From Marinicella sediminis (GTDB lineage: Bacteria; Pseudomonadota; Gammaproteobacteria; Xanthomonadales; Marinicellaceae), in assembly GCF_002000055.1 (NCBI RefSeq), contig NZ_MVBD01000003.1, positions 186,001 to 250,000 of the forward strand: 64,000 nucleotides of DNA. Reading direction: 5' to 3'. The translations under genes and the position numbers were made by a program. Position 1 is the stretch's first letter, and each line of letters opens with the position of its first letter. Positions 14,873 to 26,577 of this stretch are shown here, one piece after another. The notes beneath the pieces are model-generated. The model saw only the letters and a program-made list of their open reading frames with translations, was not told the origin of the DNA and searched no databases.

Positions 14873-16705
14873 TCAGTATTTGATCACAAAGTCGGTTTCA
14901 AATCCCTGGTCAGAGAAGCCCATCGATACGTCCTGATGAGTCCAGTAAAGCATACTGAGCGTTAACTCTTTCTGCATCTGCAGTTCCTCTTTGACCGATT
15001 GCGGCATGTTGGGCATGTCAGCCATGGCGAATACCTGTTCCATCAATTGGCGGTAACCTTCGGCACTGGCACTCATGGCAATCAACGCTTGCTTACCGGA
15101 ATCCTGTACTTTTTCACTCAGTTCACCACCACCTTCATGACCCAGTGACAGGCCAATGGTATCTGCTGAAATGGCTGCATACAGGTGGCTGATGTCAAAT
15201 GGCACGTCTTTGCCACTGATCATTGGCACTTTGTCGGCCAGGGTGATCAATGACCCATCGGTTTTCAGCTCCATACCCTGCAACTGTGGCACCATCATTT
15301 GTGCCATACCCATCAGGGCTTCGGTTTCGTCCACTGCCAGGAAAATCTGGGTTTTCAGACTTTCGATCATTTCATTGGGATCCGGGTTGGCCAGGTTGGC
15401 ATTCTCCAGATTCAGTTTCAATTCGTCCAGAGACAGGTTAAAGCCCTTGAAATTACCCACAAAAGGTGGAATGGGTTGACTCAGTTTGGCCTGCATTTCA
15501 GCGGCTTGCTGGTTCAATGGTGCCAAATGTTCACAGGCATATGGCGATGCCACCAGATCATTGGCGTATTTAACCGCCACATCCTTGGCACCCATGAGAT
15601 CAAAACTCATACCAAAAGCAAAGGCGGCATCGGCATTACCATGTGGAATGCGGCCGGCCAGGGTGGCCATGTCTGCGGCCAAAGCAGCATCCATTTCCCA
15701 AACAAAGGTGCCGTGAATCGTGTCATTGGTCAATTGTTTGTTGCCAGCGACCATGCGCGGCGCATGACCAATCAATGCTGTGATCTCAGCTTTACAGACA
15801 GCCGATAACATGTTGTCTTCAATTTGTAAAAAGTTCACCAATGCAGAATTGTGTTTTGCAGGATTGATGAAATGGTCTGCCAGTGTTTGAAAATCAACCA
15901 CCATTAAATCGTCATTGGTGTAACCGTGAGCCTGCTTGACCTGATCCATCAATGACCGGTCGTTTGCCAGAGTAGTGGCCGGTTTTTCAGCACCAATCAA
16001 TTGATTAATCAACTGATCCTTGATCACCGCAGGGGCACCCGAAATGGTCAGGTATTCACCGTCTGTGGCCAACAGCACAGTTATTTTTTCTGCTGCAATT
16101 TCACGGACTTTGATTCCACTGACCTCGGTCATTGTCATGGGCAGGTCAAATTCTTGTTGCGCCTCAGTCAACATGGCTTCCATCTGGTTACCGGCGCTGA
16201 GTTTGATACGAACTACCGGGAACAGATCTACCATGTAAACGGCGATTTGGGTTTCTCCCACTTTCAGTCCGACTTTGTTGAATTTGTCCTGGATTAACCA
16301 TTTGTCCAGAAAACTCATGGCTTTGGTGGCCATTTCATTTTGATCTGTGGAGTCAATGGTGATCGATTCTACATCTTCAGGCATACCTTCACTTTCTAAG
16401 GTTTCGGCCAATGCTTCGGCCAGTTCAGCCTGCTTTTTCTCGGCTGTTTTCATGGCTTGTTTCATGAATACTTCAAGGTATTTAACGGCCCCATCCATAT
16501 TACTTTGCATGACTTCCTGGTATCTGTCAGGATATTGATCAGGATTGATGCCACTGACCAACAAAAGCGGGGTGTCGGCAGGAATGTATGACAGGATGTC
16601 AGGCTGGGCAGCTGCCTGAGTGACCGCCTTAGCCGGGGTTTCTTTCGGGTCATCACTACATGCCACCAGGGACATGGTCATGACCAGGATCATGAGTTTT
16701 TTCAT
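14873..16705 (-). CDS. Large lipoprotein of unknown function
   Basis: 610 residues. The N-terminus is a lipoprotein signal ('MTMSLVACSDD', Cys16). The remainder is soluble and Met/Ala/Gln-rich, with 'DILSYIPADTPLLLVSGINP' early and beta-rich 'LATDGEYLTISGAPAVIKDQL' in the middle, reminiscent of DUF3352-like lipoproteins. That resemblance is weak. It is coupled to nfeD by a 4-nt ATGA overlap and follows qmcA-nfeD, so it may act with the SPFH/NfeD membrane complex from the periplasmic side. Confidence 0.6.
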   Translation of the reverse strand: MKKLMILVMTMSLVACSDDPKETPAKAVTQAAAQPDILSYIPADTPLLLVSGINPDQYPDRYQEVMQSNMDGAVKYLEVFMKQAMKTAEKKQAELAEALAETLESEGMPEDVESITIDSTDQNEMATKAMSFLDKWLIQDKFNKVGLKVGETQIAVYMVDLFPVVRIKLSAGNQMEAMLTEAQQEFDLPMTMTEVSGIKVREIAAEKITVLLATDGEYLTISGAPAVIKDQLINQLIGAEKPATTLANDRSLMDQVKQAHGYTNDDLMVVDFQTLADHFINPAKHNSALVNFLQIEDNMLSAVCKAEITALIGHAPRMVAGNKQLTNDTIHGTFVWEMDAALAADMATLAGRIPHGNADAAFAFGMSFDLMGAKDVAVKYANDLVASPYACEHLAPLNQQAAEMQAKLSQPIPPFVGNFKGFNLSLDELKLNLENANLANPDPNEMIESLKTQIFLAVDETEALMGMAQMMVPQLQGMELKTDGSLITLADKVPMISGKDVPFDISHLYAAISADTIGLSLGHEGGGELSEKVQDSGKQALIAMSASAEGYRQLMEQVFAMADMPNMPQSVKEELQMQKELTLSMLYWTHQDVSMGFSDQGFETDFVIKY

Positions 16706-18172: not shown

Positions 18173-19582
18173 TTATGCGACGCTGTTCACTAAATCCTGA
18201 CGGGACAGGGGTTTGCTCAACACCTCTGTAATCCCCAACTGTTGGAGTTGGTTAATCAGTTGAGCCGTTGGATTGGCAGTCATTAACAGGCATTTATCAG
18301 CCATCTTGGACAATTCATCCCACACCTCAGTCACCTGCTTGTTACCCAGGTTCAGGTCACTGATGGCCACATCAAATCGAGCGTTGGATTGAATCAGTTT
18401 GCGCAGGGCAGGCAGACCATTGATGGCCGTGACCTGGTGATTGAGTTCTGTCAGGTAATGCTCAAACAACAACAGGCAATCTTCGTCATCATCCAGCAAC
18501 AATACTTTTTTGGCTGTTACCAGCACAGCAAGTGGCATACTCAGTCGAAAAGTGGAGCCTGAAGAGTCACTGTGATGCAGGCACAACTGTGCAGACAACT
18601 GTTCAGCCAGCATGTTGGAGATCACCAGGCCAATGCCATTGCCGGCCGCCTCACTGCGGTGCTCTCTTGACCAGGGTTTGAACAACTGTTTCCGGAACGC
18701 TTCACTGATGCCACACCCGCTGTCCTGAACCTCACAGTGAAATTCATCACTGGTCACCTTCGAACTGATTTTAACGATGCCCTGATCGGTGTACTTGATG
18801 GCATTGCTGATGAGGTTGGTAAGGATTTGCACCCATTTACCTTGATGGCACTGTATATGGATATCATGATCAATGGCATTGATCAGTTGCAGGTTCTTTT
18901 GTGCGGCCTGTAACTGAAAATCCCGACACAGTTCTGCCACCACTTTGGCTGGTGAAAAAACCTGTTTTTGCTGACTGCTTTGTTGATTGTCATAATCCAG
19001 TGTTTGGCGGATGATGGTCGATAGTTTGTCGACATTGCTGTTGATGATTCGGGTGGCTTCACTCAGCTCTATGGCGTGCTCGGCCAATAAATCGTTGTAA
19101 CCCTTGATGGCATTGAGCGGGTTGCCCATTTCGTGTGACAGTGCGGAAATAAAAAAAGATTTGGCGTTGTTGGCTTCGCGAAGTTCCTGATGGGCGGTTT
19201 CCAATGCCTGAAACAGTCCTTTAAAGCGCAGTTTTTCAAGCTCTTCATCATGCGCCATTTGTTGCTTGTACTGTACCTGTTGATGGATCACATCCACCGG
19301 TACCATGATCAGATATTTATGCTCATTGGTCAGGGTGAAATGCACATCATAAACATGTTCTTGGTGATGATAAAAAGGCAAATAAAAGGATTCATCCAGT
19401 GGCTCTGCTGCCAGCACGGGCAGAACCTCTTTGATGTCATTGATTTGCGAAACGGCCAATACGTCCCTGGCAGTTTGATTCAAGGAAGTGACCTGATTGT
19501 CCGCATCCAGGGTGATGACGACCCAGCCTGTTGCCTGGTAATGTTCATGAATCTGCTGAACGATTTGTCCGGGTAGTTTCAC
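18173..19582 (-). CDS. Hybrid sensor histidine kinase (PAS-HisKA-HATPase-REC), cytoplasmic
   Basis: 469 residues without membrane helices. A PAS-like region (about 10-100) leads through a coiled coil ('EELEKLRFKGLFQALETA') to the dimerisation helix with the phospho-accepting His150 in 'SALSHEMGNPLNAIKGYN'. The ATPase has the N box ('NLISNAIKYTDQG'), G1 ('VQDSGCGISE') and G2 ('GNGIGLVISN'). A C-terminal receiver has the acidic pocket ('LLLDDDED'), the phosphoacceptor in 'VAISDLNLG' and the conserved Lys ('LSKPLS'). The start ATG overlaps the GTPase stop (ATGA). It is the last gene of the GTPase operon. Lack of a sensor membrane domain suggests that input comes from the operon partners. Confidence 0.9.
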   Translation of the reverse strand: MKLPGQIVQQIHEHYQATGWVVITLDADNQVTSLNQTARDVLAVSQINDIKEVLPVLAAEPLDESFYLPFYHHQEHVYDVHFTLTNEHKYLIMVPVDVIHQQVQYKQQMAHDEELEKLRFKGLFQALETAHQELREANNAKSFFISALSHEMGNPLNAIKGYNDLLAEHAIELSEATRIINSNVDKLSTIIRQTLDYDNQQSSQQKQVFSPAKVVAELCRDFQLQAAQKNLQLINAIDHDIHIQCHQGKWVQILTNLISNAIKYTDQGIVKISSKVTSDEFHCEVQDSGCGISEAFRKQLFKPWSREHRSEAAGNGIGLVISNMLAEQLSAQLCLHHSDSSGSTFRLSMPLAVLVTAKKVLLLDDDEDCLLLFEHYLTELNHQVTAINGLPALRKLIQSNARFDVAISDLNLGNKQVTEVWDELSKMADKCLLMTANPTAQLINQLQQLGITEVLSKPLSRQDLVNSVA

Positions 19583-20055
19583 GACAGTAAACGACTCAGG
19601 GCCGCAAAGCCCTCTTCAACATGATCTCCGGTTTTGGCACTGGTCCAGAAACTGTGTGCAGTCAGTCCGGCAATGGATTGATCCAGTGCCGGCTGCCAGT
19701 TGATGTCATCTTTTCGGTCAGTTTTATTGATGAAGCAGACCGCAGGCAGGGCTTTTAACTCGGGTGAGTCTGCCACAATATCGGCCAATGTGTGAACCGA
19801 CTCGGGTTCAGTGGCATCGGCCACAAAGATGATGCCATGGGCTCCTCTCAGGTAAGGTTTGTAATGATTTTCCTGTTCAAAACCCGCAATGTCCCAGATG
19901 ATCAGCTTGGTTGTGTTGTCAATGATCTTGGTGGAAATGGCGACCCCAACTGTGGTTTGATATTTATCGGCAAAATGATTTTTCACATAGCGGTCAACCA
20001 ATGAAGTCTTCCCCACTGCAAAACGTCCGATCATACAGATTTTTTTAGATTTCAT
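19579..20055 (-). CDS. Rab/Ras-like small GTPase
   Basis: 158 residues, essentially a bare G domain. G1 is 'GRFAVGKTS' (10-18), the switch I threonine is in 'QTTVGV' (about 34-35), G3 is 'WDIAGFE' (54-60), G4 is NKTD (110-113) and G5 is TSAK (138-141). The WDxAG form is eukaryote-like (Rab/Ras). The catalytic Gln of DTAGQE is replaced by Phe59, so intrinsic hydrolysis may be weak. No lipidation motif and no membrane segment. It overlaps both neighbours by 4 nt. Prokaryotic relatives include MglA and the poorly characterised 'Rup' GTPases. Confidence 0.88.
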   Translation of the reverse strand: MKSKKICMIGRFAVGKTSLVDRYVKNHFADKYQTTVGVAISTKIIDNTTKLIIWDIAGFEQENHYKPYLRGAHGIIFVADATEPESVHTLADIVADSPELKALPAVCFINKTDRKDDINWQPALDQSIAGLTAHSFWTSAKTGDHVEEGFAALSRLLS

Positions 20056-21869
20056 CGATTGACCTCAAACCAAACCCCAATCAGATCGGTATTCACGGTT
20101 GTGGTGATCTGTTCGCAGAGGATGGTTTCAACTTGAATGAGTGAGCGATCAACGCCCGATTGCACCAGCTGTTCTGCCAGCCAGGTACCCCTTTTGCGGT
20201 TATTGGCGTTGCTTTCCTGCAATGAGCCCTGGCAATCACTTTGAGCAATCAACTTGATTTGTTTTGCCTGGTTGTGTCGGTGCAGCGTTAAAAATGCCGC
20301 AGCTTTTTGGTTTAACAATGACTGCTGTGCAGGGCTGAGTTGGTTTGTAGCGATAAAATTAAGCGGCTCAGAAGTGATGCTCTTAAGCTGAGTCGAGGCG
20401 TTCAGCAGGGTTAATCCCGAAGCATCAATGGCCTCAAAGTGTTGATTCAACAACTGCCAGTAATCGTCAACATCGCTGACCATCAATTCTCCGGAAGCAA
20501 CAATTTTTTCATCAATCACCTGCAATTTGAGGTATTCAGGCAGGGGATGTTGTTGCAGGTGGTTCAGCAACTGCTGATTCAGATCAGGCGGTTGTGGCCG
20601 TGCTGTGCTTTGGTCATCTACCTGGCTGATACCGGGTATGATGCCCAGCATTTGCCGTTGTAGCCGGTGTTGTTGTACATCATCGAAATGCCCGGTCAGG
20701 GTGAGCAAGCCATGCCGGACTTCAACCTCTAAGTCGGGTTGATTGAGCAATAACCTTACCCGGTTAGCAATCAGTTCATCATCCAATGATACATAAGGTT
20801 GTGTTGCCAGGCGAATATCTGCAGACAGCGTACTGGTGTCCGCCAATGGATCCAGTAATCCGGTCACCAAAAAGCCATCGTCATTTGGCGTGATCTGCTG
20901 TACCACCAGACCATCAATGGCAGCCAATTGGAGCCTGGTTTCGCTGAGGGCTTTGTGTTGCTGATAGGTACGCCATGAAAACCAGCCAATTAATAACAAA
21001 GCAATGATCAGCCAGGGCCAGAAATTAACTCCGGATGATTCCTCATCATCAGATTGGCTTTTGGTGACCAGTAAATTTTCCAGCTCAACTTTCAAATCCG
21101 GGTTGTTATTCCAGGTATTTTGATCATTGATGTCGCTGGCAAAGTCGATGTGGATTTGTTCAGATGCGGCAGACAAGTGATCAACCAGCCTCGGGGTATA
21201 TGCCCCTTTGATGACCACGGCCAGATTGGCCTGACTGCCGGAGATGACCTCCACATTGCGTTCTCCTAACTTGGCTGCAGACAAATGGCTGCCATCATGC
21301 CCCATCGAATCCTGGACAAAACTTTCAATGGCAGTCAGCATGGCTGAGATGGCCTCTTTGTCTTGCATCAAGGCATCCTCGTGGCCGGCATGTTCAATCA
21401 GTAATCCGGATTCTTTGTCAATCAGAAAAACCTGTTGCACCTGGTATTCAATGGTGTTGCTGAAGACTATTTCAGTGAACGAAATACCTGTGCGATAGGC
21501 TTGCCAGCGCCACCTCAGCGCTTTGATGGAAAAGCGTTGCTCCATGGCCCGGTTAACGTCCTGGACAAATTTACTGATGGCATTGGCAACTGACTGCCTG
21601 ATCATTGGCCCCATGATGGGAATCATGGCGTCAATGAATGATTTCTGATTGGCTTTGATGGCCCTGGTCAGTGCTTTGGGGTCAAGCCGGGAGAACTTTT
21701 TTTGAAATTCAGGATTTTGTTTTATGGTTTGGTCAGCCGCGTTGTCCAGTACCTGGCTGACTTTTTCGGTGAATGCCTGTCGATCATCCAACAGCTTTTG
21801 TATGGCTTTGATCTGTGCAATTTCCTCACCCAGCAGTAAGGATTTTAGTTTGTCACGATCTTCGCTCAT
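20052..21869 (-). CDS. Membrane-spanning protein: Roadblock-like region, TM, BON-like and OmpA-like domains
   Basis: 605 residues. Cytoplasmic part: N-terminal 'LKSLLLGEEIAQIKAIQKLL', helical 'DAMIPIMGPMIRQSVANAI', then residues about 143-245 ('VQQVFLIDKESGLLIEHAG', 'ISAMLTAIESFVQDSM', 'NLAVVIKGAY'). This last stretch reads like a Roadblock/LC7 fold. One membrane helix at about 283-299 ('FWPWLIIALLLIGWFSW') follows. Periplasmic part: a BON-like region (about 365-420, 'VEVRHGLLTLTGHFDD') and an OmpA-like C-terminus (about 535-600, 'IKLIAQSDCQGSL', 'NANNRKRGTWLAEQL'). I recall this as a conserved but uncharacterised family often beside small GTPases. It could tether the GTPase to the envelope and regulate it. 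Confidence 0.7.
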   Translation of the reverse strand: MSEDRDKLKSLLLGEEIAQIKAIQKLLDDRQAFTEKVSQVLDNAADQTIKQNPEFQKKFSRLDPKALTRAIKANQKSFIDAMIPIMGPMIRQSVANAISKFVQDVNRAMEQRFSIKALRWRWQAYRTGISFTEIVFSNTIEYQVQQVFLIDKESGLLIEHAGHEDALMQDKEAISAMLTAIESFVQDSMGHDGSHLSAAKLGERNVEVISGSQANLAVVIKGAYTPRLVDHLSAASEQIHIDFASDINDQNTWNNNPDLKVELENLLVTKSQSDDEESSGVNFWPWLIIALLLIGWFSWRTYQQHKALSETRLQLAAIDGLVVQQITPNDDGFLVTGLLDPLADTSTLSADIRLATQPYVSLDDELIANRVRLLLNQPDLEVEVRHGLLTLTGHFDDVQQHRLQRQMLGIIPGISQVDDQSTARPQPPDLNQQLLNHLQQHPLPEYLKLQVIDEKIVASGELMVSDVDDYWQLLNQHFEAIDASGLTLLNASTQLKSITSEPLNFIATNQLSPAQQSLLNQKAAAFLTLHRHNQAKQIKLIAQSDCQGSLQESNANNRKRGTWLAEQLVQSGVDRSLIQVETILCEQITTTVNTDLIGVWFEVNR

Positions 21870-21875
21870 GGATCA

Positions 21876-22277
21876 TCAGCCTGCGATCTGGTCTGCCATT
21901 TTTTTCAATAAGCTGGCTAATTCCTTGCGGTGGGTCAGGTTTTCATCCAGGGCATCGGTTTTTTGTTGCAGTTCACTAAGGATGCTGGCTTCGGTGTCAA
22001 TGATGGTATTTTTCAACTGTTGCTCGAGTTGTGCCAGACGTTCGTTTTGATCTGCTGATAAGTGGTCCAGACCCTGATTGCTCTGTTTTTCCAGGGTTGC
22101 CAGGTTTTGACTTAATTGCTTGTCCAGCGCTTCCATTTTGTTCTTGATGCCATTGAACTGCTTGTTGATCTCAGCTTCCAGTTGAGCAAAACGTTTTTCG
22201 ATGTTTTTGGTTTGTTCGCCAAACAGAATGTCTCTGATCTGGTCGACGGAATTGGCGTTGTTTTTATTGTCTGCCAT
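21876..22277 (-). CDS. Coiled-coil protein of the GTPase operon
   Basis: 133 residues, almost entirely heptad-like helix ('IEKRFAQLEAEINKQFNGI', 'MEALDKQLSQNLATLEKQS', 'LSELQQKTDALDENL'). The N-terminus 'VDQIRDILFGEQTKNI' repeats the pattern of the neighbouring 605-residue protein ('RDKLKSLLLGEEIAQI'), suggesting a shared docking element. No membrane helix. The start overlaps the stop of the response regulator by one base (TAATG). Probably a cytoplasmic adaptor or oligomerisation partner; function not established. Confidence 0.75.
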   Translation of the reverse strand: MADNKNNANSVDQIRDILFGEQTKNIEKRFAQLEAEINKQFNGIKNKMEALDKQLSQNLATLEKQSNQGLDHLSADQNERLAQLEQQLKNTIIDTEASILSELQQKTDALDENLTHRKELASLLKKMADQIAG

Positions 22278-22969
22278 TATGATGCTCCTTGATCGGTCTT
22301 AATCAAACGATAACCTTTGTGATAAACAGAAATCAGTTTCCATCCGGAACTGCCATCAAGATCCAGTTTTTTCCGTAGCCGGCTGATGTGGGTATCCACT
22401 GTTCTGGTGGAAATGGAGGCAGTCTTGGTCCAGATGGTTTCCAACAAATAGTCACGCGAAATCAGCCGGTCCGGGTTGTTGAAAAAATAAAACGCCAGTT
22501 GGAATTCTTTGGCTGTTAGTTTGATTGGGGTGGCCAGGTAAGTCACGGTGTGCTCGTTGCTGTCAAACTGAAACGGATCAAACTCCCGTTTGTTCGGGTT
22601 ACCTTTATTATGCCGTCGGTGAAGGGCCTGAGCCCGGGCTATCAGCTCGACCTCTTTGATGGGCTTGACCAGGTAGTCATCAGCTCCCTGATCGAGTGCT
22701 TTCACCAGGTCATCATCATGACCACGGGTGGTGGCGAAAATAACCGGCAAATCATGAAAATCACTGGATCGGATCCAATTCAGGATTTCCAGTCCATTCA
22801 GTCCGGGTAGGTTCCAGTCAAGAATCACCAGGTCGGGCTGTTCATAGGGTAATTTATCAATGAAAGCCCTGCCATCAACAAACAATTGACAGTTGTGATT
22901 GTGTGCTTCAAGCCAGTGCTGCATTAACTCAGACTGGTCTGTATCGTCCTCTAAAATAAATACGTTCAT
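22277..22969 (-). CDS. OmpR/PhoB-family response regulator
   Basis: 230 residues. The receiver domain has acidic residues in 'FILEDDTDQ', the phosphoacceptor in 'VILDWNLPGLNG' (about Asp52), Thr/Ser in 'IFATTRG' and Lys in 'DDYLVKPI'. The C-terminal winged helix is of OmpR type ('LTAKEFQLAFYFFNNPDRLI', 'RTVDTHISRLRKKLDLDG', 'GYRLI'). It is the first gene of the five-gene GTPase operon and is probably the output of the hybrid kinase encoded last. Autoregulation is plausible, but no direct-repeat binding site is evident upstream. Confidence 0.92.
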   Translation of the reverse strand: MNVFILEDDTDQSELMQHWLEAHNHNCQLFVDGRAFIDKLPYEQPDLVILDWNLPGLNGLEILNWIRSSDFHDLPVIFATTRGHDDDLVKALDQGADDYLVKPIKEVELIARAQALHRRHNKGNPNKREFDPFQFDSNEHTVTYLATPIKLTAKEFQLAFYFFNNPDRLISRDYLLETIWTKTASISTRTVDTHISRLRKKLDLDGSSGWKLISVYHKGYRLIKTDQGAS

Positions 22970-23059: not shown

Positions 23060-24421
23060 TCAGCTCATCCAATTGAGTATTTTCTTTTTCAATTGGCTGT
23101 AAGGCGCCCTGACCAGGTTGTTCAGGTTGATCCGGGACTGATAGTAAACTGACTTCATGTGACTCATCGCCAGGAAGCCCTGGTGGCCGTGGTAGCTGCC
23201 CATGCCGCTGGCGCCAATGCCACCGAATGGCAAGCCTTCCTGTGCAAAGTGCACCAGGGTTTCATTGATCGCCAATGAGCCTGAAGTGGTTTGTTCTCTG
23301 ACCTGACGGATCACCGCCGGACGATGACTGAACAGGTACAATGTCAATGGTCGTTCACCTTGGTTGATGAAATCAATGCCGTCCTGCAGGGTGTCGATGG
23401 TCATGATGGGCAGATAGGGGCCAAAAATTTCTTCTTGCATTATTGGGTGATCAGCGGCTGGGTCCAATATCAGGGTAGGGGGGATTTTTTGTCTGGCAGG
23501 TTCCGACGATTCACTCAATGGCACGATTTGTGTGGCAGCAAGTCCCTCGGTGTATTTGTTGAGTCGTTGCATGTGATGAGCATTAACCACAGCCGTGTAA
23601 TCATCATTCTCAGCAAAGTCTGGGTAGCTGGTGGTCAGTTGTTGCTTCAGTTGTTCGACCAATTCAGCTTTGCGCTCTTTGCTGATCAGGATATAGTCCG
23701 GTGCGATACAGGTTTGCCCTGCATTGAACCATTTGCCTTTGGCAATGCTGTTGGCGGCTTTGTCCAGTGGATAATTATCATCAATCAGCACGGGCGATTT
23801 ACCACCCAATTCCAGGGTCAGCGGGGTGAGGTGCTGGCTGGCATTGTTCATGATGATTTTACCGACCTGCGTGGAGCCGGTGAACAACAAGTGATCAAGC
23901 GGCAACTGACTGAACTCATTGGCCACTTTTGCGTCGCCTAACACCACAAAAACTTCGTCTTCAGTAAATACTTGACGCAGCAGTTTTTGGGTCAGGGTGG
24001 CAGTTTTCGGGGTTACTTCAGATGGTTTGATCATCACCCGGTTACCGGCAGCGATGGCCGCCACCAATGGTTCAATGACCAGGTTAAAAGGATAATTCCA
24101 GGGTGCCATTACACCAACCACTCCTTTGGGTTGGGGGGAGATGGCACATTTTGAAGGGAAGAATTTCCAATTCGCGTGCCAGACCTTTTCCCTGGTCCAT
24201 TGTTTGATGTTTTTTAAGGTGTGTTTGATTTCATCAAGACAAACCATCACTTCGGCCATCTGTGATTCCTGGGCACAACGGTGAGAAAAATCACTGCTGA
24301 CTGTGTTGATGATTTCTACCTGGTGTTGTCGTATGATGCGGGCCAGTGACTTGAGGCGCGCGGTGCGTTCAGCCAGGGTCAGTGCCGGCAGTTGTTTCAT
24401 TTTTTGCAGTTGTTGTTGCAT
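23060..24421 (-). CDS. Aldehyde dehydrogenase, coniferyl-aldehyde-dehydrogenase-like
   Basis: 453 residues, short ALDH without the usual N-terminal arm. 'VMAPWNYPFNL' and 'FTGSTQVGKII' form the NAD(P) site, 'LELGGKSPVLI' holds the general-base Glu, and 'NAGQTCIAPDY' the catalytic Cys. 'PFGGIGASGMGSYHG' is typical of class-3/CalB-type enzymes that oxidise aromatic or medium-chain aldehydes. Its ATG lies 2 nt after the ntrY stop, so it is likely cotranslated with the kinase, a position normally held by ntrX. The substrate is unknown. Confidence 0.88.
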   Translation of the reverse strand: MQQQLQKMKQLPALTLAERTARLKSLARIIRQHQVEIINTVSSDFSHRCAQESQMAEVMVCLDEIKHTLKNIKQWTREKVWHANWKFFPSKCAISPQPKGVVGVMAPWNYPFNLVIEPLVAAIAAGNRVMIKPSEVTPKTATLTQKLLRQVFTEDEVFVVLGDAKVANEFSQLPLDHLLFTGSTQVGKIIMNNASQHLTPLTLELGGKSPVLIDDNYPLDKAANSIAKGKWFNAGQTCIAPDYILISKERKAELVEQLKQQLTTSYPDFAENDDYTAVVNAHHMQRLNKYTEGLAATQIVPLSESSEPARQKIPPTLILDPAADHPIMQEEIFGPYLPIMTIDTLQDGIDFINQGERPLTLYLFSHRPAVIRQVREQTTSGSLAINETLVHFAQEGLPFGGIGASGMGSYHGHQGFLAMSHMKSVYYQSRINLNNLVRAPYSQLKKKILNWMS

Positions 24422-24423
24422 AT

Positions 24424-26577
24424 TTAGGCCAATGGTAGGTGGATGCTGATTCTGGCACCGACTGTGAGGTTTTCTGCCTCAATGGTGCCACCGTGTTCTT
24501 CGACAATTTTCTTAACGATCGCCAGTCCCAGCCCTGAACCGCCTTGTTTGGTGGTTTCGTAAGGTTCGAACACATGTTCGATGATGTCTTCGGCGAATCC
24601 ATGGCCGTTGTCGGTGATGTTTAACTGGAGTTGATTGTGGTCTGTGCGGGTGCTGATGGCGATCCTGACATCCCCTTCATCGACGCTTTCCTGGGCATTC
24701 TTAATCAGGTTGGTCAGTAATTGAGTCATCCGGCCTTTGTCGAGTAATAATTGAGGTTCGGGTTCGATCAAATCGAGTTCAAACACAATACCCGGATGAG
24801 ACAGACTGTACAGGTCGACAATTTCATTGATCAGCTGATTGAGCCCTCCCAGTTCTTTTTTCAGCTCCGGGGGTTTGGCATAGTCTGAAAAGGCATTCAC
24901 CAGGGTTTTCAGGTTTTCCACCTGAGAAACGATGGTTTGGGTGGCCCGGTTGAGGATCTCATCTTCTTCTTTTGACAATTTGCCGGCGAAACGCATGTGC
25001 ATCCGTTCGGCCGATAATTGGATTGGGGTGAGCGGATTTTTGACCTCATGTGCCAGTCTTCTGGCCACTTCACTCCAGGCGGCATCACGCTGTGCCTGAT
25101 TGATGATGGTCTGGTCATCAAACACAATCACATGACCACCGCCTTCAATTTCCTGTTCACTGATCTGCGAACCGCGGACCAGCAGGATCCGCCGCAGAGA
25201 ATCTTCTGCGATCAACACTTCCTGTTGCCAGTAATTGGTTTTGTCAGTCACTTTTTGTTTGATCAATTCAATCAAAGGCTGCAATGTTGGGTTTTTCATT
25301 GCTATGTAGTCGATGTTGCGATTGATCAGGCTGTGCTTGCCCAGATGGAGGATCTTATGGGTGGCTTCATTGCTCAGCCGGATCAGCAGATCCTGATCAA
25401 TACTGATCACACCACTGGTCAGGTGAGACAACACATTCTCAAGATATGCCCTTTGGTTCTCTGCATCACTTTGTGCGCGGTGAGCCAGTGCGCTGGAGGT
25501 GGCGATTTGTGATGACATGGAGTTGAATGACTCGATCAGTAGCCCCAGCTCATCCTTGGAATCCACCGGAATGACTTTACTGAATTTACCTTCAGTGATG
25601 TCTTTGGTTGCTTCAGACAACAGTTTAATTGGTGCCACCAACCGGCGTGCTGAAGAAAATGCCCGCAGCATGGCCAGCAACACGCTGATCAACAGCACAA
25701 TGGTCAGGATGATGTTGAAGGTGCTTTTCAGTTGTTGACGCTGATAGGTTTGTTTGTCGTACTCATGAAACTGGGTTTCGATGTTGATGGCCAGGCTTTC
25801 ATATTCTTCGGGAATTGGAAACAAGCCCTGCAGGTATCTTCTCGAACCGACGCTGGCGGTGTTATTGAAGATGGGCAAAACCACGCGGATTTGTAAGCCG
25901 GTGGCACCGGCAGGTTCAACCCGGGCATAATTGCGGTTGTTAGACACTTCGTTGAAAGTATTTTGTGGCAGGGTCGGAGAGACAAAGTTTAGGGGATCTA
26001 TGTTGCTGCTGCTGACCAGCTGTCCATCAGAGCCATAGATGGACAAAGAATTGGCTTTGGAGTTATCCAGTAAACGATCGAGGTAGATCGCCTGATTCAA
26101 TACCGGTACTTCAGAAAGTTCGGTGACCATGCTGCGGGCTTCGTTCAGATGTGCCAGGGTTTGGGTGTCCAGGAAAGTGTTGCCCAGGGTGATGGCATCA
26201 TTCAGTGCCTGGTCGGTTCGCACATCAAACCAGGAGTCGACATATTGATTGACCAGCATGGTGGCAAACAAGTACAGCACGATCACTGGAGGCAATGACA
26301 AACCGGTGAACATCAACACCATGCGGGTGGTCAGCTGAATACCGGGTTCCTTGTCTTTTCTCTTCAGGTACAACCAGACAATGCGTTGAATGATGATCAG
26401 GGTCAGGATCAATACAGCCAGGACTGATGCGGCGAACAGCCAAATGTATATCCGATTAAACTGTTCAGCTCCCTGAATGGCCCGGGCCAATAGGTATAAA
26501 GCGGTCAGCAAAGTGATCAGCAATGCCATGATGGGCAGGTTCTTGTTGAGCAACAAAGGTCGCAGCTGTTTCATCAT
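24424..26577 (-). CDS. ntrY: NtrY-like transmembrane sensor histidine kinase
   Basis: 717 residues. N-terminal membrane helices ('IMALLITLLTALYLLA', 'WLFAASVLAVLILTLIII', 'GLSLPPVIVLYLFATMLV') flank a periplasmic sensor region, then a further helix ('IILTIVLLISVLLAML'), a HAMP segment and a PAS region ('LSHLTSGVISIDQD'). The kinase core has His in 'RRLAHEVKNPLTPIQLSAE', N box 'LTNLIKNAQESVD' and G boxes 'DNGHGFAED' and 'GGSGLGLAIVK'. NtrY normally pairs with the regulator NtrX; no ntrX is adjacent. It follows DUF4390 with an ATGA overlap, as in the conserved rsmB-DUF4390-ntrY order. Confidence 0.9.
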   Translation of the reverse strand: MMKQLRPLLLNKNLPIMALLITLLTALYLLARAIQGAEQFNRIYIWLFAASVLAVLILTLIIIQRIVWLYLKRKDKEPGIQLTTRMVLMFTGLSLPPVIVLYLFATMLVNQYVDSWFDVRTDQALNDAITLGNTFLDTQTLAHLNEARSMVTELSEVPVLNQAIYLDRLLDNSKANSLSIYGSDGQLVSSSNIDPLNFVSPTLPQNTFNEVSNNRNYARVEPAGATGLQIRVVLPIFNNTASVGSRRYLQGLFPIPEEYESLAINIETQFHEYDKQTYQRQQLKSTFNIILTIVLLISVLLAMLRAFSSARRLVAPIKLLSEATKDITEGKFSKVIPVDSKDELGLLIESFNSMSSQIATSSALAHRAQSDAENQRAYLENVLSHLTSGVISIDQDLLIRLSNEATHKILHLGKHSLINRNIDYIAMKNPTLQPLIELIKQKVTDKTNYWQQEVLIAEDSLRRILLVRGSQISEQEIEGGGHVIVFDDQTIINQAQRDAAWSEVARRLAHEVKNPLTPIQLSAERMHMRFAGKLSKEEDEILNRATQTIVSQVENLKTLVNAFSDYAKPPELKKELGGLNQLINEIVDLYSLSHPGIVFELDLIEPEPQLLLDKGRMTQLLTNLIKNAQESVDEGDVRIAISTRTDHNQLQLNITDNGHGFAEDIIEHVFEPYETTKQGGSGLGLAIVKKIVEEHGGTIEAENLTVGARISIHLPLA

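What the first reader, a model, noticed from the sequence alone, without database searches (positions are those of the whole stretch)
18173..22969. Five-gene operon joining two-component signalling to a Rab-like GTPase and an envelope-spanning partner
A response regulator, a coiled-coil protein, a protein with cytoplasmic Roadblock-like and periplasmic BON/OmpA-like parts, a small GTPase and a soluble hybrid kinase are encoded with 1-4 nt overlaps or a 6-nt gap. The kinase has no membrane sensor of its own, so the likely input is a mechanical or cell-wall signal read by the OmpA-like end, relayed through the GTPase state to the kinase and the OmpR-type regulator. Small GTPases with Roadblock regulators (MglA/MglB) are established in polarity control; a direct link to a His-kinase pathway in one operon is, to my knowledge, little described.
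Basis: partly seen in the sequence, partly recalled or inferred. Interest (0 to 1): 0.85.

Follow-up and report, generated by a model that had tools for sequence, protein, structure and literature searches.

The report
Cell-wall-anchored Rab-type GTPase signalling operon
Five overlapping bacterial genes encode a small Rab-like switch protein, a membrane partner that probably grips the cell wall and whose inner part is predicted to fold like the docking domains of Rab switches in our own cells, and a sensor kinase with its gene regulator; the gene set was first described in 2014 and its job still appears untested.

Summary
The five genes are real, same-strand and tightly packed. They are a 'Group 1 Rup' small-GTPase system, a neighbourhood described computationally in 2014 (Wuichet & Sogaard-Andersen, PMC4316618): Rup GTPase, coiled-coil protein, (unknown domain)-TM-OmpA protein and an output module. 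The kinase link is therefore not new as an idea; I saw no experiment on it.

Co-conservation is strong. Of 119 loci chosen only for the 605-aa protein, 106 hold the GTPase and 102 the coiled-coil gene. The OmpR-type regulator goes with the kinase version only (40 of 54 kinase loci, 0 of 28 others). Elsewhere the output is an HD-domain protein, cyclase or sigma-54 activator, which suggests that the GTPase module is the input.

New here: the 'unknown' cytoplasmic domain is predicted to have a longin/Roadblock fold, scoring better against longin domains (the fold of several Rab GEFs) than against Roadblock; no Pfam model hits it. None of 108 GTPases has the catalytic G3 Gln, while both output classes carry a conserved Gln after their N-terminal domain (92 of 93; 12 of 12). 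Mechanism is inferred; a covariation test was negative.

The parts
22277..22969 (-). OmpR/PhoB-type response regulator (230 aa): receiver + winged helix; found with the kinase version of the system only
   Evidence: association (HK+RR 40, HK without RR 14, no HK with RR 0, neither 28, of 82 loci)
21876..22277 (-). coiled-coil protein (133 aa) with N-terminal IRDILFG motif; core member of the system
   Evidence: 102 of 119 loci; motif in 89 of 103 incl. window
20052..21869 (-). 605-aa membrane protein, core member: helical N-terminus, longin/Roadblock-type domain, one TM, BON-like and OmpA-like periplasmic part
21057..21446 (-). longin/Roadblock-type domain, residues 142-271 of the 605-aa protein (b-b-a-b-b-b-a-a)
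   Evidence: AF2 model; Foldseek; VIA-align
20976..21035 (-). transmembrane segment, about residues 279-298
   Evidence: hydropathy; 106 of 119 homologues have a segment over the threshold
20610..20780 (-). BON-like periplasmic domain, residues 364-420 (below Pfam cut-off)
   Evidence: E 0.0043
20130..20348 (-). OmpA-like region, residues 508-580 (below Pfam cut-off), D545/R560 kept
19579..20055 (-). Rab/Ras-like small GTPase (158 aa), Rup type: G1 GRFAVGKTS, G3 DIAGFE without catalytic Gln, NKTD, SAK
18173..19582 (-). soluble hybrid histidine kinase (469 aa): PAS-like domain, long helix, HisKA, HATPase, receiver; no Hpt hit
19166..19582 (-). kinase residues 1-139: PAS-like fold plus helix 97-139 carrying conserved Gln107; this adaptor also occurs alone or on other outputs

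Best explanation
The operon is a Group 1 Rup G-protein system of the kinase/OmpR subtype. SHOWN by sequence and comparison: the coiled-coil, 605-aa and GTPase genes form a near-constant core; the gene after the GTPase is an interchangeable output; the kinase version usually comes with the OmpR regulator. PREDICTED by structure model: the cytoplasmic domain of the 605-aa protein is a longin/Roadblock-type GTPase platform tethered by one TM helix to a periplasmic part that probably binds the wall, and the kinase starts with a PAS-like domain and a long helix. INFERRED: the wall-bound end senses the state or distance of peptidoglycan; this changes how the longin-type platform (probably a dimer, helped by the coiled-coil protein) loads or unloads the GTPase; the GTPase docks near the PAS-helix junction of the kinase, whose Gln107 may complete GTP hydrolysis in trans (an idea of the 2014 paper); docking shifts the kinase between states, and the OmpR protein carries the change to transcription.
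For: Core co-conservation: GTPase 106, coiled coil 102 of 119 loci picked by the 605-aa protein; GTPase downstream on the same strand in 103 of 106, within 20 bp in 84 of these, median overlap 4 nt by first start codon. Reverse survey: 17 of 19 fetched GTPase loci (19 of 49 places listed) have coiled-coil + 605-aa genes beside them. Output exchange: of 28 non-orthologous genes after the GTPase, 11 hit HD_5, 8 HATPase_c, 4 HisKA, 3 class III cyclase, 1 sigma-54 activator. Gln: 0 of 108 GTPases have it in G3; Gln107 is kept in 92 of 93 aligned PAS-helix domains, window included (50 of 50 in A5; 50 of 50 kinases in A7; these sets overlap); a Gln in 12 of 12 class B outputs. Fold. Wall end: OmpA in 12 of 25, Asp/Arg pair in 93 of 119. 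RR-HK association 40/14/0/28 of 82.
Against: No interaction is measured or modelled. Covariation between GTPase and 605-aa protein or PAS-helix domain did not exceed shuffled pairings. The AF2 model of residues 1-285 is only moderate (mean pLDDT 78, pTM 0.52; helix 171-188 about 63-70). Neither Pfam Longin nor Robl_LC7 detects the domain; profile comparison with Roadblock is marginal (P 0.012, probability 3.6%). The kinase has a receiver but no Hpt, and the OmpR protein is missing in 14 of 54 kinase loci, so the final phosphotransfer is unsure. Thirteen of 119 loci have the 605-aa protein without a GTPase in the stretch held, and 3 of 106 have it on the opposite strand. One PAS-helix protein (L084) has Arg at the Gln107 place. 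The GGDEF/EAL outputs of the 2014 paper were not among the 28 scanned.
Confidence: 0.6

Rival explanations
1. The GTPase is the output, not the input: the kinase/regulator side sets the GTPase state, and the GTPase acts on localisation or on the wall-binding protein, as the 2014 authors proposed for conservons.
For: In conservons, which lack a response regulator, MglA was proposed as the output (PMC4316618); MglA-type GTPases act in polarity (passages, abstracts).
Against: Here the gene after the GTPase is a swappable enzyme or regulator and the kinase version mostly comes with its own response regulator, so these look like the outputs.
Confidence: 0.2
2. The cytoplasmic domain is a true MglB-type Roadblock GAP fused to a membrane protein, and the system is an MglAB-like pair.
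For: hhalign to a Robl_LC7 alignment pairs the expected first strands and helix (P 0.012, against 0.19 for PAS versus Roadblock); MglB 6h5b_B is at rank 7 in Foldseek (E 9.7e-4).
Confidence: 0.2
3. The proteins form a wall-anchored scaffold that places the output enzyme at a cell site (pole, septum), with little or no signalling by the GTPase cycle.
For: Coiled-coil partner, OmpA-like end and interchangeable cytoplasmic enzymes.
Against: GTPase G1, G4 and G5 motifs are strongly conserved, as are the catalytic residues of the kinase.
Confidence: 0.15
4. The 605-aa protein is only an envelope linker, and the operon is a chance or regulatory grouping.
For: Homologues without a GTPase in the stretch held exist, mostly in large sulphur bacteria.
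Against: GTPase and coiled-coil genes are adjacent in loci of many phyla.
Confidence: 0.03

Closest known systems
Group 1 Rup GTPase systems (Wuichet & Sogaard-Andersen 2014, PMC4316618; section 18 read in full, other passages found by term)
   Same: Single-domain Ras-superfamily GTPase without the G3 Gln; coiled-coil neighbour; (unknown domain)-TM-OmpA neighbour; output module (histidine kinase or GGDEF/EAL) with an N-terminal invariant Gln.
   Different: The text that I read does not mention an OmpR-type regulator or a fold for the unknown domain of Group 1 Rup systems (supplement not read). Outputs seen here also include HD-domain, class III cyclase and sigma-54 activator proteins.
Actinobacterial conservons / AGPS (CvnA-D; PMC13343842, abstract and outline; passages of PMC4316618)
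   Same: Histidine kinase, Roadblock-type protein and small GTPase in one operon; some have an accessory protein where the kinase has no sensory domain.
   Different: Separate MglB-type gene, CvnC protein, MglA-type GTPase, no response regulator; no wall-binding membrane protein among the four named core parts.
MglA/MglB/RomR polarity module (passages of PMC4316618, abstracts)
   Same: Small GTPase plus Roadblock-type regulator plus receiver-domain protein.
   Different: MglA belongs to the other prokaryotic family; MglB is a soluble Roadblock (recalled); motility output. [quoted passage not shown]
Longin-domain Rab GEFs of eukaryotes (Mon1-Ccz1, TRAPP, Fuzzy-Inturned; their GEF roles are partly recalled)
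   Different: Bacterial, single-pass membrane protein with an OmpA-like end, output is two-component signalling; no significant sequence match to longin families.

Membership tests
Group 1 Rup system | Small single-domain Ras-superfamily GTPase (under 240 aa) | tested here: met
   158 aa; PF00071 75.9 bits over 5-155
Group 1 Rup system | No catalytic Gln in G3 | tested here: met
   DIAGFE; 0 of 108 sequences, window included, have Gln at this place
Group 1 Rup system | Not coupled to a separate MglB gene | tested here: met
   The genome's two Robl_LC7 hits lie on contigs C1 and C2, not on the window's C23
Group 1 Rup system | Neighbouring coiled-coil gene | tested here: met
   21876-22277; 102 of 119 loci
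Group 1 Rup system | Neighbour with conserved unknown domain, often with TM and OmpA domain | tested here: met
   TM at 279-298; OmpA below cut-off in the window (E 0.21) but in 12 of 25 homologues; Asp/Arg pair kept
Group 1 Rup system | Output module with N-terminal invariant Gln | tested here: met
   Gln107; kept in 92 of 93 aligned domains, L084 has Arg. That this is the same Gln as in the 2014 logo was not checked against their figure
Group 1 Rup system | GTPase placed inside the Group 1 clade of a tree | not tested
   The 2014 reference sequences were not at hand
Longin domain | Order b-b-a-b-b-b-a-a with a second C-terminal helix | tested here: met
   AF2 model elements; longins align over 142-271; prediction only
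Longin domain | Sequence match to a curated longin family | tested here: inconclusive
   No significant hit; one of 53 members touches Fuz_longin_1 at E 0.13; the control genomes rang nowhere
Roadblock/LC7 (MglB) | Robl_LC7 (PF03259) match | tested here: not met
   No hit in the window protein or the consensus; not among the 25 families shown of 44 for the 53 members
Roadblock/LC7 (MglB) | Fold with packed N-terminal helix | tested here: inconclusive
   Roadblock chains align from residue 142 on, their N-terminal residues unaligned; model helix 131-139 has low confidence
Conservon | Separate MglB-type gene beside the GTPase | tested here: not met
   None of the five products matches Robl_LC7; CvnC was not searched by name
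Two-component system | Intact phospho-acceptor and catalytic residues in the kinase | tested here: met
   N256, D287-x-G-x-G, G314/G316 invariant and H150, D409, K457 nearly invariant in A7, all present in the window

The most novel reading that the evidence does not exclude
Bacteria of many phyla possess a true Rab-longin pair: a Rab-type GTPase switched by a longin-fold platform that is fixed across the envelope to peptidoglycan, with an exchangeable output protein that supplies the missing catalytic Gln in trans. This would be a bacterial trans-envelope G-protein pathway, and the longin-Rab partnership, which the papers seen here place in archaea and eukaryotes, would exist in bacteria as a signalling device.
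Probability: 0.35. Interest if true: 0.86.

Novelty: new member of a known kind. Interest (0 to 1): 0.62.

Why it matters
By the 2014 analysis Group 1 Rup GTPases are very similar to the eukaryotic Rab/Ran/Ras/Rho group, yet no Rup protein had then been characterised, and the listings of seven library searches made here showed no later experiment. A predicted longin-type partner encoded next to nearly every one examined gives a concrete candidate for the regulator, would explain why no MglB was found, and makes the GEF/GAP question testable with two or three soluble fragments. It also offers an unexplored route from the cell wall to kinases and other signalling enzymes in many bacteria.

Tried and rejected
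Tried without result: (1) Mutual-information covariation between GTPase and 605-aa protein (107 pairs) and between GTPase and PAS-helix domain (89 pairs): top z 21.7 and 15.0, against shuffled maxima of 19.9 (mean) and 36.9 (highest of 20) and of 25.4 and 61.9. (2) PDB sequence search with the 605-aa domain profile and the PAS-helix profile: nothing below E 0.1; MglB at E about 0.8-1.2 for the PAS-helix profile I take as noise, since its fold matches PAS. (3) Pfam on the domain consensus: no Longin or Robl hit. (4) Longin family PF13774 in 41 relatives: none, and the controls rang nowhere, so no conclusion. (5) PMC13075795 was opened because of the word 'longin'; it is an author name.

Considered and rejected: that HD-domain partners falsify the trans-Gln idea. 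At first their N-terminus seemed to lack the Gln domain, but aligned on their own 12 of 12 class B proteins carry a Gln in one column (no structure model of that class was made). It stays a hypothesis. Conservon membership: rejected (no MglB gene). A first, stricter pattern for a motif shared by coiled-coil and 605-aa proteins hit only 21 of 103 and 77 of 120; looser, separate patterns hit 89 of 103 and 108 of 119.

Selection and drops: the 119 loci are 40 (of 45 genomes with a hit and 12 other than the window's own; G233, G244, G268, G281, G295 not fetched) plus 79. They hold at least three repeated contigs (L072/L127, L073/L122, L088/L191); counts are not corrected. A4 uses the window plus 52 of 61 candidates, A5 the window plus 49 of 58; the rest were left out to shorten the list, and later took all 91 ORFs with the PAS-helix domain. 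A6 holds 28 of the 103 genes after the GTPase, those that I judged not to be the orthologous kinase; some short or truncated ones were left out. From L177 was dropped as a likely false ORF (no Pfam hit; it lacks the Gln). Of 49 places listed, 19 of my choice were fetched. HMM thresholds are mine.
Full report
WHAT IS THERE. On the minus strand, 22969 to 18173, five genes follow each other with a 1-nt overlap, a 6-nt gap and two 4-nt overlaps: an OmpR/PhoB-type response regulator (230 aa), a coiled-coil protein (133 aa), a 605-aa membrane protein, a Rab/Ras-like GTPase (158 aa) and a soluble hybrid histidine kinase (469 aa). Pfam gives Response_reg and Trans_reg_C for the first, Ras (75.9 bits) for the GTPase, and HisKA, HATPase_c and Response_reg for the kinase. 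No Hpt domain was hit. Hydropathy finds one TM segment in the 605-aa protein (about 279-298) and none reaching the same threshold in the other four. Upstream is a 90-bp gap to an aldehyde dehydrogenase on the same strand; downstream a 92-bp gap to a band-7 protein.

WHERE IT COMES FROM. Contig G126:C2, labelled 'same class', has the length of CAMYKB010000002.1, 'uncultured Gammaproteobacteria bacterium', and the matched stretch is identical, so the host is probably a gammaproteobacterium.

CO-CONSERVATION. The 605-aa protein has matches in 24 of 274 genomes of the class and in 23 of 41 relatives, the window's own genome counted in both. In these 119 loci, chosen without regard to the GTPase, the GTPase is found in 106, the coiled-coil gene in 102, the PAS-helix domain of the kinase in 88, a close kinase in 71 and a close OmpR regulator in 53 (at least three contigs occur twice). 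The GTPase lies downstream on the same strand in 103 of 106, within 20 bp in 84 of these; the median is a 4-nt overlap counted from the first start codon. The reverse survey agrees: of 19 GTPase loci that I fetched from other families (19 of the 49 places), 17 have the coiled-coil and 605-aa genes beside them (the exceptions are L233 and the 757-aa outlier L248). The record titles name Gammaproteobacteria, Acidobacteria, Nitrospirota, Desulfobacteraceae and Desulfomonile, Dehalococcoidia, Latescibacterota, Coatesbacteria, a Rhodospirillaceae bin, Microseira (Cyanobacteriota) and Roseithermus (Rhodothermota); most are MAGs, so single assignments may be wrong. Of the 13 loci without a GTPase, 11 carry titles of large sulphur bacteria or Thiotrichales, one ends inside the gene (L184) and one is unnamed (L089).

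THE OUTPUT IS EXCHANGEABLE. Of 28 genes after the GTPase that are not the orthologous kinase, 11 hit HD_5 (the HD-GYP type), 8 HATPase_c, 4 HisKA, 3 a class III cyclase domain, 1 a sigma-54 activator. The GGDEF/EAL outputs named in 2014 were not among these 28. The OmpR regulator follows the kinase: among 82 loci with at least 2.5 kb on both sides, kinase and regulator 40, kinase without regulator 14, regulator without kinase 0, neither 28. So the constant part is coiled coil + 605-aa protein + GTPase, and the enzyme is what varies; I read the first as input and the second as output.

THE GTPASE. Its profile hits Rab23, Rab35, Sec4 and Rab1 best in the PDB. G1, G4 and G5 are intact. None of 108 sequences has Gln at the G3 position, a stated mark of Group 1 Rup GTPases.

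THE KINASE START AND ITS GLUTAMINE. Residues 1-139 are modelled with high confidence (pLDDT 91.7) as a PAS-like domain with a long helix from 97; the best matches are PAS domains. Gln107, early in that helix, is invariant in A5 (50 of 50) and in the kinases of A7 (50 of 50, overlapping set). Over all 91 ORFs with this domain plus the window, 92 of 93 aligned domains keep it; L084 has Arg. Other outputs (class B) have a different N-terminus, yet also a Gln in one column in 12 of 12, at what looks like the corresponding place (L177 dropped). This extends the 2014 observation of an invariant Gln in the output proteins. It fits either a docking site or a Gln supplied in trans; it does not decide between them.

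COILED COIL. The coiled-coil protein begins with an IRDILFG-like motif (89 of 103 by one pattern; 16 of 6,172 other ORFs) that resembles the start of the 605-aa protein (hhalign P 7.4e-4, reversed control 0.21). The two may share a docking partner or pair with each other.

WHAT IS KNOWN. Wuichet and Sogaard-Andersen (PMC4316618; section 18 read in full; other passages) described Group 1 Rup neighbourhoods with coiled-coil gene, unknown-domain/TM/OmpA gene and a kinase or GGDEF/EAL output, stated that no Rup protein had been characterised, and suggested a complex like the conservon. The window fits every feature that I could test; the place of the GTPase in their tree was not tested. Conservons (PMC13343842, abstract and outline) link kinase, Roadblock and GTPase experimentally. 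PMC3521125 (passages) derives eukaryotic longins from prokaryotic Roadblock proteins; PMC10933270 (passages) reports longins in Asgard archaea. The listings of my library searches showed no paper on a longin-type partner of Rup GTPases and no experiment on a Group 1 Rup system; the library holds only openly licensed papers, listings are capped, and supplements were not read.

VERDICT. The added value here is the predicted longin-type GTPase platform, the kinase-regulator association, the wider set of outputs, and the Gln in both output classes. Mechanism and direction of signalling remain inferred; the one direct test of coupling that I could run, covariation, was negative.

Noticed in passing
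window 21876-22277 (-) and about 21830-21869 (-): The coiled-coil protein and the 605-aa protein start with similar short motifs (IRDILFG / LKSLLLGEE); hhalign P 7.4e-4, reversed control 0.21.
   Followed up: partly
L151, L153, L156, L165, L168, L169, L171, L176, L182, L187, L190: Large sulphur bacteria (record titles Thioploca, Thiomargarita, Parabeggiatoa, Halobeggiatoa, Thiotrichaceae/Thiotrichales) carry versions of the 605-aa protein with no GTPase gene found in the stretch held, some of it short; two copies in L169.
   Followed up: no
G000:C1:31540-31755 (L001) and G000:C2:99274-99486 (L002): The window's genome has two Robl_LC7 proteins elsewhere; whether they have MglA partners was not looked at.
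   Followed up: no
L174 and L186: A GTPase and a stand-alone PAS-helix protein (142-151 aa, too short for an enzyme domain) lie on the strand opposite to the 605-aa gene.
   Followed up: no
window 14873-16705 (-): A 610-aa protein with a lipoprotein-like start has no Pfam match, next to an NfeD-like (by look) and a band-7 gene.
   Followed up: no
window 23060-26577 (-): An aldehyde dehydrogenase and a 717-aa kinase (NtrY-like by look) precede the operon on the same strand; a kinase ORF of similar length lies in the same place in several genus relatives.
   Followed up: no
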